A DNA stretch of 64,000 nt, taken from an uncultured Pelagibacteraceae bacterium (GTDB lineage: Bacteria; Pseudomonadota; Alphaproteobacteria; Pelagibacterales; Pelagibacteraceae). Below, in pieces: positions 30,287 to 33,857 of this stretch (its first letter is position 1; each line of letters opens with the position of its first letter). The stretch lies in assembly GCA_902576375.1 (NCBI GenBank), contig CACGUZ010000001.1, forward strand, positions 248,001-312,000. The letters run 5' to 3'. The notes under the pieces were generated by a model. The model did not search any database. It had not been told where the DNA came from and was given only the letters and a program-made list of their open reading frames with translations. Both the position numbers and the translations under genes were made by a program.

Positions 30287-30315
30287 GGGGCGTTCTGTTG
30301 CCAGGTGCCCCGAAC
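30287..30315. repeat. att-like core copy 1 (ssrA 3' fragment, outer junction)
   Basis: 29 bp identical to 32161-32189 and to 33557-33585 inside ssrA. It starts GGGGCGTTC and ends GCCCCGAAC. Left of it lies sequence unlike the other copies (presumably the original chromosome); right of it TTTGTTTCA is shared with copy 2, as expected of an element start. Confidence 0.9.
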
Positions 30316-30379
30316 TTTGTTTCAATAATCCTTATATTGCAACAATCAGCAATAATCAAATCACACAAATTATAGAATA

Positions 30380-30437
30380 ATGCCGACCAAATGCCGACCA
30401 AAAATCTGGTCGTCACAGGCTTCATGATTTGATAGCC
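30380..30437 (+). promoter_or_regulatory. E1 left-end array: tandem hexamers, inverted hexamer, hairpin
   Basis: ATGCCGACCAA occurs twice in tandem (30380-30390, 30391-30401), placing CCGACC at 30383 and 30394, 11 bp apart. After an 8-bp spacer the inverse GGTCGT lies at 30408-30413, then CACAG. A hairpin follows: AGGCT at 30417-30421 pairs with AGCCT at 30434-30438, with GATTTG in the loop. E2 has the same plan with different hexamers and stem. It could be protein-binding arm sites, an operator, or an RNA leader; I cannot tell which. Confidence 0.75.
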
Positions 30438-30444
30438 TTGGATT

Positions 30445-30468
30445 ATGAAAAAGCTTTTAAAATATTAA
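30445..30468 (+). other. Eight-codon ORF MKKLLKY before the DUF3764-like gene
   Basis: ATG at 30445 lies 32 bp after the TCACAG box, exactly where E2 starts its first secreted-protein gene (32308, also 32 bp after TCACAG). It reads MKKLLKY then TAA, resembling a signal-peptide start that has been cut off. TAATAAGGAGG joins its stop to the ribosome site of the next gene. It may be a remnant of a replaced first gene or a coupling leader peptide. Confidence 0.4.
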
Positions 30469-30481
30469 TAAGGAGGTTCAT

Positions 30482-30796
30482 ATGGGAATACTAGTTAAAG
30501 GTGAAATTACAATTACTAAAGGATTTAAAACTTGGAAAGAGATGGTTTATGCTCAGGATGGAAAATTAAAAGAACATGGAATAAAGTTTATTTTTGCAGG
30601 CACACAAAAAGATGACCCGACAAAACTTCATACAGTAATGCAATTTCCAAACATGGAAGCACTCCAAGCTTTTAGAGATGATAAGGAACTTACTGAGAAA
30701 AGAAAGGAAGCAGGAGCTGTTATAGAAAGTGCTGTAATGATACCAATTTCAGATGAGCATTTAACCAACTATCCGGATGCATACACAAATCATTAA
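30482..30796 (+). CDS. DUF3764-like / dimeric alpha-beta barrel small protein
   Basis: 104 aa, no signal peptide. ITKGFKTWKEMVYAQDGKLKEHGIKFIFAGTQKDDPTKL (residues ~12-50, given here as its key segments GFKTWKEM and GIKFIFAG) and VMQFPNMEALQAFRDDKELTE have the strand-helix-strand rhythm of ferredoxin-like dimeric barrels, and resemble DUF3764 proteins of marine bacteria as I recall them. The function is unknown. It has the strongest ribosome site of the element (AAGGAGG at 30470-30476). It abuts the next gene (stop TAA followed by ATG). Confidence 0.6.
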   Translation: MGILVKGEITITKGFKTWKEMVYAQDGKLKEHGIKFIFAGTQKDDPTKLHTVMQFPNMEALQAFRDDKELTEKRKEAGAVIESAVMIPISDEHLTNYPDAYTNH

Positions 30797-31231
30797 ATGA
30801 AAAAACTTTTAGGGATCGTGGTTCTGGGTTTGTTTTTAAGCATGAATGCTTATGCTAAAATTGTCAACAAAACTTTTCAATTTAACTGCAATAATGTGTT
30901 TGATAGTGAAACTAGAGCAATTGTAACAATTACTTTTGATGATAAGACTGGCGAAATTAAAAAGGGGAAAGCTACATTATTAAGAGGAGATAAAAGATCT
31001 GATTATGAAAATTTAATCTCAGATAGCTCTTCTATCGGTGGATTTGAGAACGATCTTTATAGCGCAACATTTATTGAAAAAAGTAAAACTCATATATGGG
31101 GATTTCAAATAGAAGGTTTCGACAAAACGAGTTATGAACTTTATAAATTTCAAGTTGGTGATTATAAAACCAAAAATCCTTATATTCTCACAGGGGATGC
31201 AACTGATCGTTTAAAGTGTATAATGTTATAG
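30797..31231 (+). CDS. Small secreted protein with two cysteines (E1 cargo)
   Basis: 144 aa, not recognised. A clear signal peptide MKKLLGIVVLGLFLSMNAYA ends at AYA-K. The mature part is rich in beta-strand patterns and has just two cysteines, one close to its start (QFNCNN) and one five residues from the end (RLKCIML), as in the other cargo proteins of E1 and E2. Likely periplasmic with one disulphide. It follows the DUF3764-like stop directly and is followed by another secreted protein after 3 bp. Confidence 0.7.
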   Translation: MKKLLGIVVLGLFLSMNAYAKIVNKTFQFNCNNVFDSETRAIVTITFDDKTGEIKKGKATLLRGDKRSDYENLISDSSSIGGFENDLYSATFIEKSKTHIWGFQIEGFDKTSYELYKFQVGDYKTKNPYILTGDATDRLKCIML

Positions 31232-31234
31232 ATT

Positions 31235-31654
31235 ATGAAAAAAATTTTAGGGATTATGTTTCTGATTTTAATTATAACATCTAATGCTTTTTCTGAAATA
31301 ATAACATTAAAATGTGATGGCAAATATGCCACAAGATATGCAGTAATTGATTTAGATAACAAAAAATTAGGATTTGAAAAATCAATGCCAAGAGATTTAA
31401 ATTGGGAAATTGTAAATGTATCTAATTATGAAATTGTAGCAGAAAAGTTATTTATGAGAAAATACACAGATGGCCATATTTATAAAAGCACAAATATATT
31501 AATTATCAATAGAATTAATGGACAAGTTACTGACGATAGGCGAGTTGAACAAATAAACAAAAATCCAGATGCAAATTACGATTCAAGTGGAATACCTGTA
31601 ACAGTAATACCCAAAGTTGTTTGTGAACCATTTAGTGGAGAAGCTAAATTCTAA
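31235..31654 (+). CDS. Small secreted protein with two cysteines (E1 cargo)
   Basis: 139 aa, not recognised. The signal peptide MKKILGIMFLILIITSNAFS is very similar to that of the preceding gene although the mature parts do not look alike. The mature protein starts EIITLKCDGKY and ends KVVCEPFSGEAKF, again with only two cysteines near the two ends. The ATG is preceded by ATAGATT; no good ribosome site, as for several genes here. Confidence 0.68.
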   Translation: MKKILGIMFLILIITSNAFSEIITLKCDGKYATRYAVIDLDNKKLGFEKSMPRDLNWEIVNVSNYEIVAEKLFMRKYTDGHIYKSTNILIINRINGQVTDDRRVEQINKNPDANYDSSGIPVTVIPKVVCEPFSGEAKF

Positions 31655-31714
31655 TATCTTTATTTAAACAAAATTAAGACCTAAAAAAAACAATCAATAG
31701 TGCCAATATTTATA

Positions 31715-32083
31715 ATGCGTTTATTAGTAGCTTTCTTATTAATGTGCTCGAACTCATTTGCTGATCAAGGTCTTAAAATCTCCTGCCTTAATATTTTGAC
31801 TGCAATTGGTGAAAAGCACGAACATGAAAATTTCACTTTAGACGTAATACATTTTGAATTCTTAGATAAAAAAAATAATAGCTTTAAAAAAATTCAAACT
31901 AAAGATCTCATAATTGGTGATAATTATTTCACAGCAAAATTAAATGATTATGAAATGACATTTCAGAATATGATTTTTAAAGATGATCAGAAAGAGAGAA
32001 TGATGATGAGTAAATATGATATAAAAAATCATAAATATACAGATCATTATTTTTGCGATTACTCATTAGCAGATATAAATTAA
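31715..32083 (+). CDS. Small secreted protein (E1 cargo)
   Basis: 122 aa from ATG at 31715; a GTG at 31700 in the same frame would add five residues but gives a poorer signal peptide. MRLLVAFLLMCSNSFA is a compact signal peptide. The mature part has two cysteines, in LKISCLN near its start and YFCDYS near the C-terminus, continuing the pattern of this region. Function unknown. The stop TAA overlaps the first base of the right-end hexamer array, so the array directly follows the coding region. Confidence 0.62.
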   Translation: MRLLVAFLLMCSNSFADQGLKISCLNILTAIGEKHEHENFTLDVIHFEFLDKKNNSFKKIQTKDLIIGDNYFTAKLNDYEMTFQNMIFKDDQKERMMMSKYDIKNHKYTDHYFCDYSLADIN

Positions 32084-32143
32084 TGCCGACCACAGGCCGA
32101 CTCACTCAGTTGTATTTTTTAAATAACGTTGATACTGCAAACT
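32083..32143. repeat. E1 right end: hexamer pair plus conserved end block
   Basis: CCGACC at 32086-32091 and CCGACT at 32097-32102 are 11 bp apart and repeat the hexamer of E1's left end. They are followed by a block running 32110-32143 that ends in TAACGTTGATACTGCAAACT (32124-32143), identical to 33521-33540 in E2. The second hexamer ends 58 bp before the core at 32161. Confidence 0.75.
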
Positions 32144-32160
32144 AAATTAACAAATGAGAA

Positions 32161-32189
32161 GGGGCGTTCTGTTGCCAGGTGCCCCGAAC
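32161..32189. repeat. att-like core copy 2 (junction between E1 and E2)
   Basis: Identical over 29 bp to copies 1 and 3. Its left flank matches that of copy 3 (element ends) and its right flank TTTGTTTCA (32190-32198) matches that of copy 1 (element starts), the arrangement expected at the junction of two tandem insertions. Confidence 0.9.
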
Positions 32190-32245
32190 TTTGTTTCATT
32201 ATAGCCAATTATTTTTCCAAAACCACGTAAATTTAATGTATCAGG

Positions 32246-32301
32246 ACGAGTAGAGTACGAGTGAAAATCGACTCGTCACAGATTATTAGATTTGGTAATC
32301 T
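32246..32301 (+). promoter_or_regulatory. E2 left-end array: tandem hexamers, inverted hexamer, hairpin
   Basis: ACGAGT at 32246-32251 and 32257-32262 (11 bp apart), 8-bp spacer GAAAATCG, exact inverse ACTCGT at 32271-32276, then CACAG. The hairpin AGATTA (32280-32285) with TAATCT (32296-32301) has loop TTAGATTTGG. Every distance equals that in E1 (11, 8, and 32 bp from TCACAG to the ATG), while hexamer and stem sequences differ. Confidence 0.75.
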
Positions 32302-32307
32302 CAGATT

Positions 32308-32553
32308 ATGAAAAAAATTTTTTTAATATTGTTTTTTTTTATTTTTGTTTCTCAATCGTTTGCAGATGAAATGACAATAAATGGTCTATTAAAACAGGGA
32401 TATAAAATTAAAGACGAAACAATTATTAAAAATGGTCCAGGAAATTTTGATCAAAAAATTATTACATTAATTAGTGGCAAAAACTATGCTGTATGCACTA
32501 TTCAAATTAGCGCTCTCCAGGGTCCAAAATTTCAAAAATGTATAAAACCATAA
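32308..32553 (+). CDS. Very small secreted protein (E2 cargo)
   Basis: 81 aa with signal peptide MKKIFLILFFFIFVSQSFA and a mature part of about 62 residues: EMTINGLLKQGYKIKDE, then a short beta-rich stretch with two cysteines (YAVCTI and FQKCIKP). Short proteins starting with 'adeMT...LL..GYK' and ending with a cysteine near the C-terminus are common among SAR11 hypothetical proteins as I know them. Function unknown; likely periplasmic. The ATG follows the E2 hairpin. Confidence 0.7.
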   Translation: MKKIFLILFFFIFVSQSFADEMTINGLLKQGYKIKDETIIKNGPGNFDQKIITLISGKNYAVCTIQISALQGPKFQKCIKP

Positions 32554-32556
32554 ATT

Positions 32557-33474
32557 ATGAAAAGAATTTTAAGTATAATATTTTTTATAATACCCTGGAT
32601 CTTTTTTACTTCAATTATTTCAGCTAAAGCAGAGCTTATAAAAGCTAATTGCTTGATAGATGAATTTTATCTTCAAGAGCAAAAAATTGATAAATCAGAA
32701 CAACAGGTTCTGGCCGGAAAAGTTATTAAGTTGGAAGTAGACACAAATAAAAAATTAATCTTTGATAAATCAGACTTGAAAAGAATTATTATATTAACTG
32801 GTATTCCTGAAGAGGGAATTAAATACGAAGGCACCTCAAGCATAACTTATCAAAATGAATTAAAAGTAATTGATCAAGAAAATGATAAAGAATTAAAATA
32901 TATTTATAATAATTCTATATTATTGGAGAATAATGAAATATCTCAATTAAATATTAAAATTGATCAAACAGGAATATCATTAAATAAATGGAAATTTTTT
33001 ATTAAATGTAGATCAGGTGAATATACCGATATTGAAAAAAAAATAGCTAGAAGAACTCTGCCCCCAGATAAATCATTAGTAAAACCAAAATATAAACTTG
33101 ATGAAAATGGAAAACCAATTCTCTTTCTTTTTGAAGCCCCACCTAAAGTAAATAAAATGCCTAAAAATTTTATTTTAGATGCAGACATTAGTTCAAACCC
33201 TCCCATTGAAGATATGATATATGAGCTTGAGATTAAGAATGCTGAGGATCTTTTAAATTATTATAAAGCAAAATTATTCGACAATAATAAAAGAGTTTCT
33301 CTAGAGCTTTCAAGGCAATTTATGACTTTTAAAAAAGGTGAGAGAATTTCGTATGAAAATATAAAAGATCTTGAAGAGAAAAAATTTTTTAGAATTCCTT
33401 TAAAGGATGATATGGAAAGCCATATGCTAAAGTTTTATAAGAAAGAATATTACAAAGAAAAAAAGAAATTATAG
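32557..33474 (+). CDS. Secreted protein of unknown function (E2 cargo)
   Basis: 305 aa. Signal peptide to about residue 27 (FFTSIISAKA). The first ~150 residues form a beta-rich domain with cysteines in IKANCLIDE and FIKCRSGEY. The second half (KPKYKLDENGKPILFLFEAPPKVNK... to the lysine-rich end) looks mainly helical and charged. Not recognised. It starts 3 bp after the previous stop. The C-terminal lysine run YKEKKKL ends 9 bp before the right-end hexamers. Confidence 0.65.
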   Translation: MKRILSIIFFIIPWIFFTSIISAKAELIKANCLIDEFYLQEQKIDKSEQQVLAGKVIKLEVDTNKKLIFDKSDLKRIIILTGIPEEGIKYEGTSSITYQNELKVIDQENDKELKYIYNNSILLENNEISQLNIKIDQTGISLNKWKFFIKCRSGEYTDIEKKIARRTLPPDKSLVKPKYKLDENGKPILFLFEAPPKVNKMPKNFILDADISSNPPIEDMIYELEIKNAEDLLNYYKAKLFDNNKRVSLELSRQFMTFKKGERISYENIKDLEEKKFFRIPLKDDMESHMLKFYKKEYYKEKKKL

Positions 33475-33482
33475 TTTTCATG

Positions 33483-33540
33483 ACGAGTACAGGACGAGTC
33501 ATTAGGTTGTATTTTTAAAATAACGTTGATACTGCAAACT
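33483..33540. repeat. E2 right end: hexamer pair plus conserved end block
   Basis: ACGAGT at 33483-33488 and 33494-33499 (11 bp apart, separated by ACAGG as in E1) repeat the E2 left-end hexamer. The shared block follows from 33507 and ends TAACGTTGATACTGCAAACT at 33521-33540. The second hexamer ends 57 bp before the core at 33557. Confidence 0.75.
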
Positions 33541-33556
33541 TTTTTAATAAAAGGAA

Positions 33557-33585
33557 GGGGCGTTCTGTTGCCAGGTGCCCCGAAC
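33557..33585 (-). repeat. att-like core copy 3 = native pseudoknot at the ssrA 3' end
   Basis: Third identical 29-bp copy; this one continues into the rest of ssrA on its right. Read on the minus strand it can fold as an H-type pseudoknot: GTTC pairs with GAAC and GGGGC with GCCCC in interleaved order, joined by ACCTGGCAACA. Confidence 0.88.
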
Positions 33586-33816
33586 CCCGTTTACTTAATT
33601 AACAAAGTTAATTAAGCAGCAAGTGCGTAACTTTCGTTAGCAATTATAAAATAGCCCTTTTCGGAGGAACAATTCCGAACGAAAGAATAGCTTTTAGTCA
33701 CTCGTCGAATCTAGTTCACCCCCATAAGTTGTAAATGGTGGAGGTGGTGGGTACTGCCCCCACGTCCGCAATGGTTATTACGAAATTCGTTTATCGTCAT
33801 AGTTGGAAATCCAACT
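33557..33816 (-). ncRNA. ssrA: Permuted two-piece tmRNA (ssrA), tag ANESYALAA
   Basis: tmRNA rescues stalled ribosomes and tags their products for proteolysis. Read on the minus strand, the acceptor piece comes first: hairpin at 33801-33816, then T arm 33763-33747 (stem GTGGG/CCCAC, loop GGCAGTA), acceptor strand CACCTCC, A, and encoded CCA ending at 33736. After 12 nt the coding piece begins at 33723 with GGGGGTG, which pairs with CACCTCC over 7 bp; the third pair is G-U, the alanine identity element. AGATTCGACGAG follows, then pseudoknot 1 (TTCGGA/TCCGAA) and the tag codons 33641-33615, giving ANESYALAA with TAA at 33614-33612. The stop lies within the hairpin CTTAATTAAC/GTTAATTAAG, and the 3' pseudoknot ends the gene. 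The permutation is the alphaproteobacterial type. Confidence 0.95.
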
Positions 33817-33821
33817 TTATT

Positions 33822-33849
33822 AATATAAAAGGAAATGCAAGAGATTCAA
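33822..33849 (-). promoter_or_regulatory. Putative ssrA promoter
   Basis: On the minus strand TTGAAT (33849-33844) is followed after 16 bp by TATATT (33827-33822). The predicted start near 33815 is exactly at the first hairpin of the acceptor piece. It lies in the gap between ssrA and thyX. Confidence 0.5.
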
Positions 33850-33857
33850 TAACATTC

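What the first reader, a model, noticed from the sequence alone, without database searches (positions are those of the whole stretch)
30380..33499. Element-specific hexamer code at both ends of each cassette, always 11 bp apart
In E1 the hexamer CCGACC(T) occurs as an 11-bp-spaced pair near the left end (30383, 30394), inverted 8 bp later (30408), and again as an 11-bp-spaced pair at the right end (32086, 32097). In E2 the same frame is filled with ACGAGT (32246, 32257; inverted 32271; 33483, 33494). Layout and spacing are kept while the hexamer changes jointly at all five places. The pairs lie 56-67 bp inside the cores, as arm-type sites do in phage attP. Joint change suggests one element-specific binding protein or guide recognises both ends, so the hexamer may act as an identity tag deciding which enzyme mobilises or silences which cassette.
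Basis: seen in the sequence. Interest (0 to 1): 0.88.

Follow-up and report, generated by a model that had tools for sequence, protein, structure and literature searches.

The report
Integrase docking tags on hitchhiking cassettes
Two small gene cassettes inserted next to an essential RNA gene of a SAR11 ocean bacterium carry the same short DNA tag at both ends; the tag differs between cassettes and most likely marks where an integrase docks, and because neither cassette encodes an integrase, each probably depends on one supplied by another mobile element.

Summary
The 'core' is the 3' end of the permuted tmRNA gene (ssrA; 33553-33853, minus); E1 and E2 are tandem insertions there.

I cut 176 core-to-core intervals from relatives. 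A GC-rich hexamer repeated at an 11-bp step occurs at 74 left and 78 right ends, never in mid-element. Both ends share the pair in 62, against 6.4 when right ends are permuted. None of the larger elements screened encodes an integrase.

The key is a class of tyrosine integrases on elements at tRNA genes or ssrA in related genomes. Nearly all have the same kind of pair between attachment site and start codon, and it recurs at the element's far end (13 elements, p = 5e-5). One at ssrA (L153) fits E1's left-end frame and hexamer. Another at ssrA (L177) matches a cassette's hexamers exactly.

So the hexamers are best read as integrase arm-type sites, and E1 and E2 as non-autonomous cassettes moved in trans. 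Arm-type sites are a known kind of thing; arrays of integrase-less cassettes bearing many of them are a new variant. Not shown: binding, mobilisation, a helper for E2, or that the integrase N-terminus sets the hexamer. No sign of guides, silencing or exclusion.

The parts
30287..32160 (+). E1: integrase-less cassette, core to core (1874 bp)
32161..33556 (+). E2: integrase-less cassette, core to core (1396 bp)
30287..30315 (+). att core copy, left boundary of E1
   Evidence: exact 29-mer, 3 copies, 0 expected
32161..32189 (+). att core copy between E1 and E2
33557..33585 (+). att core copy inside the 3' end of ssrA, right boundary of E2
33553..33853 (-). ssrA, permuted alphaproteobacterial tmRNA (tag ANESYALAA): the integration target
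   Evidence: Rfam RF01849, 220 bits; ARAGORN
30383..30388 (+). E1 left arm copy 1, CCGACC
30394..30399 (+). E1 left arm copy 2, CCGACC
30408..30413 (-). E1 left arm, inverted copy (GGTCGT on +, 5/6)
32086..32091 (+). E1 right arm copy 1, CCGACC
32097..32102 (+). E1 right arm copy 2, CCGACT
32246..32251 (+). E2 left arm copy 1, ACGAGT
32257..32262 (+). E2 left arm copy 2, ACGAGT
32271..32276 (-). E2 left arm, inverted copy (ACTCGT on +)
33483..33488 (+). E2 right arm copy 1, ACGAGT
33494..33499 (+). E2 right arm copy 2, ACGAGT
32109..32142 (+). conserved right-end segment of E1 between arm and core (GTTGTATT...GATACTGCAAAC); possible bending-protein site or ssrA terminator, untested
   Evidence: shared with E2 and many relatives
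33506..33539 (+). conserved right-end segment of E2, as above
30482..30796 (+). E1 cargo ORF, DUF3764-like
   Evidence: PF12594 E=2.9e-7
30797..31231 (+). E1 cargo ORF with signal-peptide-like start, no Pfam family
31235..31654 (+). E1 cargo ORF with signal-peptide-like start, no Pfam family
31700..32083 (+). E1 cargo ORF, no Pfam family
32308..32553 (+). E2 cargo ORF with signal-peptide-like start, no Pfam family
32557..33474 (+). E2 cargo ORF with signal-peptide-like start, no Pfam family

Best explanation
The hexamer pairs are arm-type binding sites for the N-terminal domain of a tyrosine integrase of the phrog_1 type (closest solved structures 5c6k, XerA, HP1 and lambda integrases). E1 and E2 are non-autonomous integrative cassettes. 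Each would have a complete attP when excised: left arm (two direct copies plus one inverted), the ssrA-derived core, right arm (two direct copies). Neither has an integrase. When a satellite or phage brings an integrase that acts at the ssrA 3' end and whose N-terminal domain reads that hexamer, it can excise or integrate the cassette in trans. Repeated integration at the ssrA end builds the tandem array. Shown: target site, layout, shared hexamers, absence of integrases, and the same kind of pairs beside integrase genes and at their far ends. Inferred: binding, trans-mobilisation, and that the hexamer decides the helper.
For: Core is the ssrA 3' end; ssrA loci with one core and no arms exist in relatives (L217-L220). 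The 11-bp pair is specific to both ends and co-varies within elements. Larger elements lack integrases. An integrase-bearing element sits at ssrA in L153: integrase (phrog_1, 3.5e-55) and primase-like ORF; its left end ATCACGACCAAATGTAGACTCAAAAATGAGTCGGG aligns in E1's frame and its right end carries CCCGACC. Of 18 integrase loci of the first round, 15 have a clear pair at 11 or 12 bp with at most one mismatch in 7 between attachment site and start codon, L153 and L179 have two mismatches, L188 is unclear; further loci agree. For 13 with a located far end the hexamer recurs there, permutation p = 5e-5. L177 (at ssrA) matches cassette L008:1459 at 14 of 14 hexamer-pair letters; L207 shares an exact 18-mer with cassette L045:3583, and 13 cassettes hold its pair within one mismatch of 14 against 0 for shuffled versions. 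Precedent: tmRNA-integrating cluster K mycobacteriophages have two pairs of 11-bp arm-type repeats flanking the core, with arm sequence and integrase N-terminal residues differing between relatives (PMC3203893).
Against: No binding or mobilisation data. No integrase of this class in this genome. No satellite with E2's ACGAGT was found. L153's arms differ from E1's by several letters and score poorly in the automatic far-end test. The correlation of N-terminus with hexamer is weak. 22 of 84 elements have unlike ends. The helix-turn spacing is also typical of excisionase sites (PMC7498355).
Confidence: 0.85

Rival explanations
1. The pairs are binding sites of an excisionase (recombination directionality factor), not of the integrase: such proteins bind short direct repeats one helical turn apart beside att sites.
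For: Phage 186 Apl binds five 6-bp direct repeats at 10-11 bp spacing at attP (PMC7498355). The pairs lie just upstream of int genes, where such factors can also regulate int.
Against: The same hexamer occurs at both ends with similar layout, plus an inverted copy at the left, as expected for arm sites; from general knowledge, excisionase sites usually lie on one arm. No excisionase gene was identified in the cassettes, though small ORFs were not examined exhaustively.
Confidence: 0.1
2. E1 and E2 are inert relics of former satellites that lost their integrase, and the arms merely record their ancestry (compatible with the arm-site reading, but against present mobilisation in trans).
For: Decay to cis-mobilizable elements is the described route for integrase-less neighbours in tandem islands (PMC5704250). 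G078 carries a lone right end without a left core. 22 of 84 elements have unlike ends.
Against: 62 elements keep matched arms at both ends. Many are very small with varied cargo, and no satellite gene remains were recognised in the larger ones. Retained matching arms suggest selection or recent movement, but this was not dated.
Confidence: 0.25
3. The hexamer is an identity mark for exclusion or silencing between cassettes, read by a regulator or guide.
For: E1 and E2 differ in hexamer.
Against: Cassettes in one array share a hexamer at least as often as chance (8 of 39 against 4.8). No RNA family other than tmRNA was found at the locus and no silencing gene was seen.
Confidence: 0.03

Closest known systems
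Arm-type sites of tyrosine integrases (lambda; mycobacteriophages L5, Giles, cluster K)
   Same: Short repeats, often in pairs, on both sides of the core, read by the integrase N-terminal domain; cluster K phages also use the tmRNA gene and show arm variation between relatives (PMC3203893).
   Different: Here most carriers lack an integrase, and many different hexamers occur in cassettes at one target gene.
Cis-mobilizable elements (CIMEs) and integrase-less ssrA islands of Dehalococcoides
   Same: att-flanked elements without integrase, tandem at one RNA gene (PMC5704250, PMC3146451); 15 Dehalococcoides ssrA islands lack an integration module.
   Different: Dehalococcoides uses serine recombinases and no arm-type sites were found in that paper. 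SAR11 cassettes are much smaller and keep matched arms at both ends.
Marine satellites and tycheposons
   Same: Integrase-bearing elements of about 4-8 kb at tRNA genes or ssrA in streamlined marine bacteria, some with primase- or AAA-like genes.
   Different: E1 and E2 lack recombinase and replication genes. The original tycheposon paper was not available here.
Integron gene cassettes
   Same: Arrays of small cassettes without their own recombinase.
   Different: No integron integrase beside the array; arms on both sides of the core; the array adjoins an RNA gene.

Membership tests
Integrase arm-type sites | Repeated short sites on both sides of the att core | tested here: met
Integrase arm-type sites | Same kind of sites in elements that encode a tyrosine integrase, on both sides of their core | tested here: met
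Integrase arm-type sites | Bound by the integrase N-terminal domain | not testable with these tools
   Pfam Arm-DNA-bind_4 matched 2 of 15 integrases, only weakly
Integrase arm-type sites | Arm sequence tracks the integrase N-terminus | tested here: inconclusive
   Mantel r 0.14, p 0.06; close relatives mostly share hexamers, fairly close pairs L154/L207 and L183/L208 differ
CIME (cis-mobilizable element) | Flanked by att sites, no integrase or transfer gene | tested here: met
   no integrase or transfer family in the six window cargo ORFs; larger relatives screened by motif and by eye
CIME (cis-mobilizable element) | Derived by decay of an ICE or IME | tested here: inconclusive
   no conjugation or satellite genes recognised; origin unknown
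CIME (cis-mobilizable element) | Mobilised with or by another element | not testable with these tools
   inferred from shared arms
Tycheposon | Carries a tyrosine recombinase | tested here: not met
   none in E1 or E2
Integron cassette array | Integron integrase beside the array | tested here: not met
   the only PF00589 protein in this genome lies on another contig
Excisionase (RDF) binding sites | Direct short repeats one helical turn apart at att | tested here: met
   this feature is shared with arm-type sites
Excisionase (RDF) binding sites | Cognate excisionase gene in the element | tested here: inconclusive
   none recognised in E1 or E2; small ORFs not exhaustively searched

The most novel reading that the evidence does not exclude
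SAR11 ssrA holds a shared pool of tiny integrase-less cassettes whose arm hexamers act as a combinatorial address: integrase target choice (catalytic and core-binding domains) and cassette choice (N-terminal arm domain) evolve independently, so elements that use other target genes carry the same arm code, and each incoming satellite mobilises only the cassettes it can read.
Probability: 0.4. Interest if true: 0.75.

Novelty: new variant of a known kind. Interest (0 to 1): 0.62.

Why it matters
Cassette arrays of this kind occur widely in SAR11 genomes, one of the most abundant bacterial groups of the surface ocean. If arm hexamers set who can move whom, helper-cassette pairs can be predicted from sequence, and the many natural site variants become a data set for how integrase arm domains read DNA, a question so far studied in a few model phages.

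Tried and rejected
Exact 22-base core in viral contigs: no hit. The 20-base core there: 11 contigs; the sequence after the core looks like the body of a permuted tmRNA gene in all (Rfam-confirmed in L104, L105, L110; the others by eye), no arm pair was seen in the up to 130 bases before it, and L108 holds only 21 bases there. Core against the phage collection: only chance-level matches. Integrase relatives in viral contigs: none for L153 or L154 alone; two distant ones (26-29%) with the L177/L153 alignment. The near-universal 307-325-aa recombinase of the genus was considered as helper and set aside: in this genome it is Cre/Xer-like with a SAM-like N-terminal domain and no recognisable arm domain, and lies on another contig. 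Exclusion within arrays was tested and not found. A first permutation test with hexamers chosen separately per end gave a weaker result because registers slipped; one search replaces it. A first Mantel test with 17 integrases was null. A PADLOC scan failed on a wrong frame and was not repeated.

Full report
What is there. The window lies in a SAR11 (Pelagibacterales) genome; database relatives of the locus are titled Pelagibacteraceae. The 29-base 'core' occurs three times (30287, 32161, 33557) and nowhere else in this genome. Its rightmost copy is the 3' end of the coding piece of the permuted tmRNA gene ssrA (Rfam RF01849, 220 bits). E1 and E2 are therefore tandem insertions at the ssrA end. 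In relatives, ssrA loci with one core and no arms exist (L217-L220), and one keeps only a right end without a left core (L216). The left neighbours of ssrA differ between those genomes, so only the ssrA side was compared.

The hexamers. None of 20,000 shuffles reproduced the five-copy frame in either element.

Across relatives. I fetched loci from genome contigs and related genomes and cut them at core copies allowing up to three mismatches, so some intervals are not true cassettes. Of 176 intervals of at least 300 bp, 74 left and 78 right ends hold an identical GC-rich hexamer at an 11-bp step, none in mid-element. Of 84 with pairs at both ends, 62 share it, against 6.4 when right ends are permuted. 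That permutation was across all elements; the within-frame-class test, made with a cruder hexamer choice, is weaker but in the same direction (54 close matches against 27 expected, maximum 39). The script lists 35 hexamer strings, many of them shifted registers of one motif; by eye at least about 15 are distinct. Arms fall on an 11-bp lattice from the core.

No integrase inside. ORFs of elements over 2.4 kb include, by eye, a restriction-modification-like set (L072), large ORFs of possible defence type (L075, L090) and glycan genes (L044, L048), but no tyrosine integrase by motif and inspection. The window cassettes carry small ORFs, one DUF3764-like, the rest without a Pfam family. This genome has one PF00589 protein, Cre/Xer-like, on another contig.

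The integrase link. Among PF00589 genes of the genus, L153 proved to be an integrase-bearing element at ssrA itself, with a phrog_1-type integrase and a primase-like ORF. Its left end aligns with E1's left frame and its right end carries CCCGACC. Searches with the L153/L154 profile and then a 15-integrase profile found more. Dropping repeat fetches (L159, L160, L206) and near-identical copies (L210, L212, L213) leaves 24 integrases with readable start codons, 23 of them full length. Nearly all carry a pair at 11 or 12 bp between attachment site and int. L188 is unclear, and L153 and L179 are imperfect. For 13 with a far end located through the repeated attachment site, own far ends match best (mean score 12.3 against 9.4 for others; p = 5e-5). 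L153 and L188 score poorly in that automatic test, though L153's ends agree when aligned by eye.

Shared arms. L177, at ssrA, has TGGCGTC twice, as does cassette L008:1459. L207, at a site that looks like tRNA-Met, has GGGCACACATAGGGCACA, identical to the reversed right end of cassette L045:3583; 13 cassettes hold that pair with at most one mismatch in 14, against none for shuffled versions. So arm sequence and target gene are not tied one to one.

N-terminus and hexamer. The integrases match solved 5c6k, HP1 and lambda integrases only from about residue 55-100 onward, which leaves the first 50-60 residues as the candidate arm domain; Pfam recognises an arm domain only weakly in 2 of 15. Hexamer distance correlates weakly with N-terminal distance. 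Pairs L154/L207 and L183/L208 are 68% and 76% identical in the catalytic part yet carry different hexamers, with 69% and 59% identity in residues 1-30. This is suggestive only.

Array logic. Cassettes in one array share a hexamer at least as often as chance (8 of 39 pairs against 4.8), so the tag does not behave as an exclusion mark.

Known precedent. Cluster K mycobacteriophages integrate at tmRNA, have two pairs of 11-bp arm-type repeats flanking the core, and differ in arms and in integrase residues 17 and 19 (PMC3203893). Excisionase sites have a similar spacing (PMC7498355) and remain the main molecular rival. Integrase-less islands at ssrA are known in Dehalococcoides, with serine recombinases (PMC3146451), and CIMEs in general (PMC5704250). 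I found no account of the SAR11 arrays in the papers searched; subscription papers are not held.

Conclusion. Arm-type sites on non-autonomous cassettes is the best reading, at 0.85. Mobilisation in trans and hexamer-set helper choice are inferred.

Noticed in passing
L104-L114: Eleven viral contigs whose copy of the core is the end of what is or looks like a phage-borne permuted tmRNA gene (one on a 242-kb contig), with no cassette arm seen beside it.
   Followed up: partly
L077:3557, L100:1493; L099:2867, L055:1317: Core copies, some with cassettes, also occur away from ssrA: next to what looks like the end of rnhA (read from the translated sequence by eye), and next to a small basic ORF.
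   Followed up: partly
G000:C4:68667-69200 and most genomes of the genus: A single Cre/Xer-like recombinase of about 307-325 aa per genome, in a glycan-gene region here; the complete genome G078 has no other PF00589 match.
   Followed up: partly
window 30797-30861, 31235-31299; many cassettes: Cargo ORFs begin with similar signal-peptide-like starts (MKKLLGIVVLGL...) ahead of unrelated bodies.
   Followed up: no
left ends, e.g. L007:2241, L031:3520, L032:4175, window 30424-30450: A conserved leader GATTTGATAACCTTGGATCATG ends in an ATG; found in 12 of 176 elements, opening a long ORF in only some.
   Followed up: partly
L067:4402, L090:1504, L041:553, L040:5880: Right ends with three tandem repeats such as ACTTCGTGTAA at 11-12 bp, unlike their left arms: perhaps a different integrase system.
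   Followed up: no
L021, L029, L064, L067, L070, L091: Short core-to-core intervals without arms that hold the same small ORF, beginning MYELFANLT.
   Followed up: no
32109-32142 and 33506-33539: A 34-bp right-end segment is kept while the hexamers beside it change; it lies just downstream of ssrA and could serve as bending-protein site or ssrA terminator.
   Followed up: no
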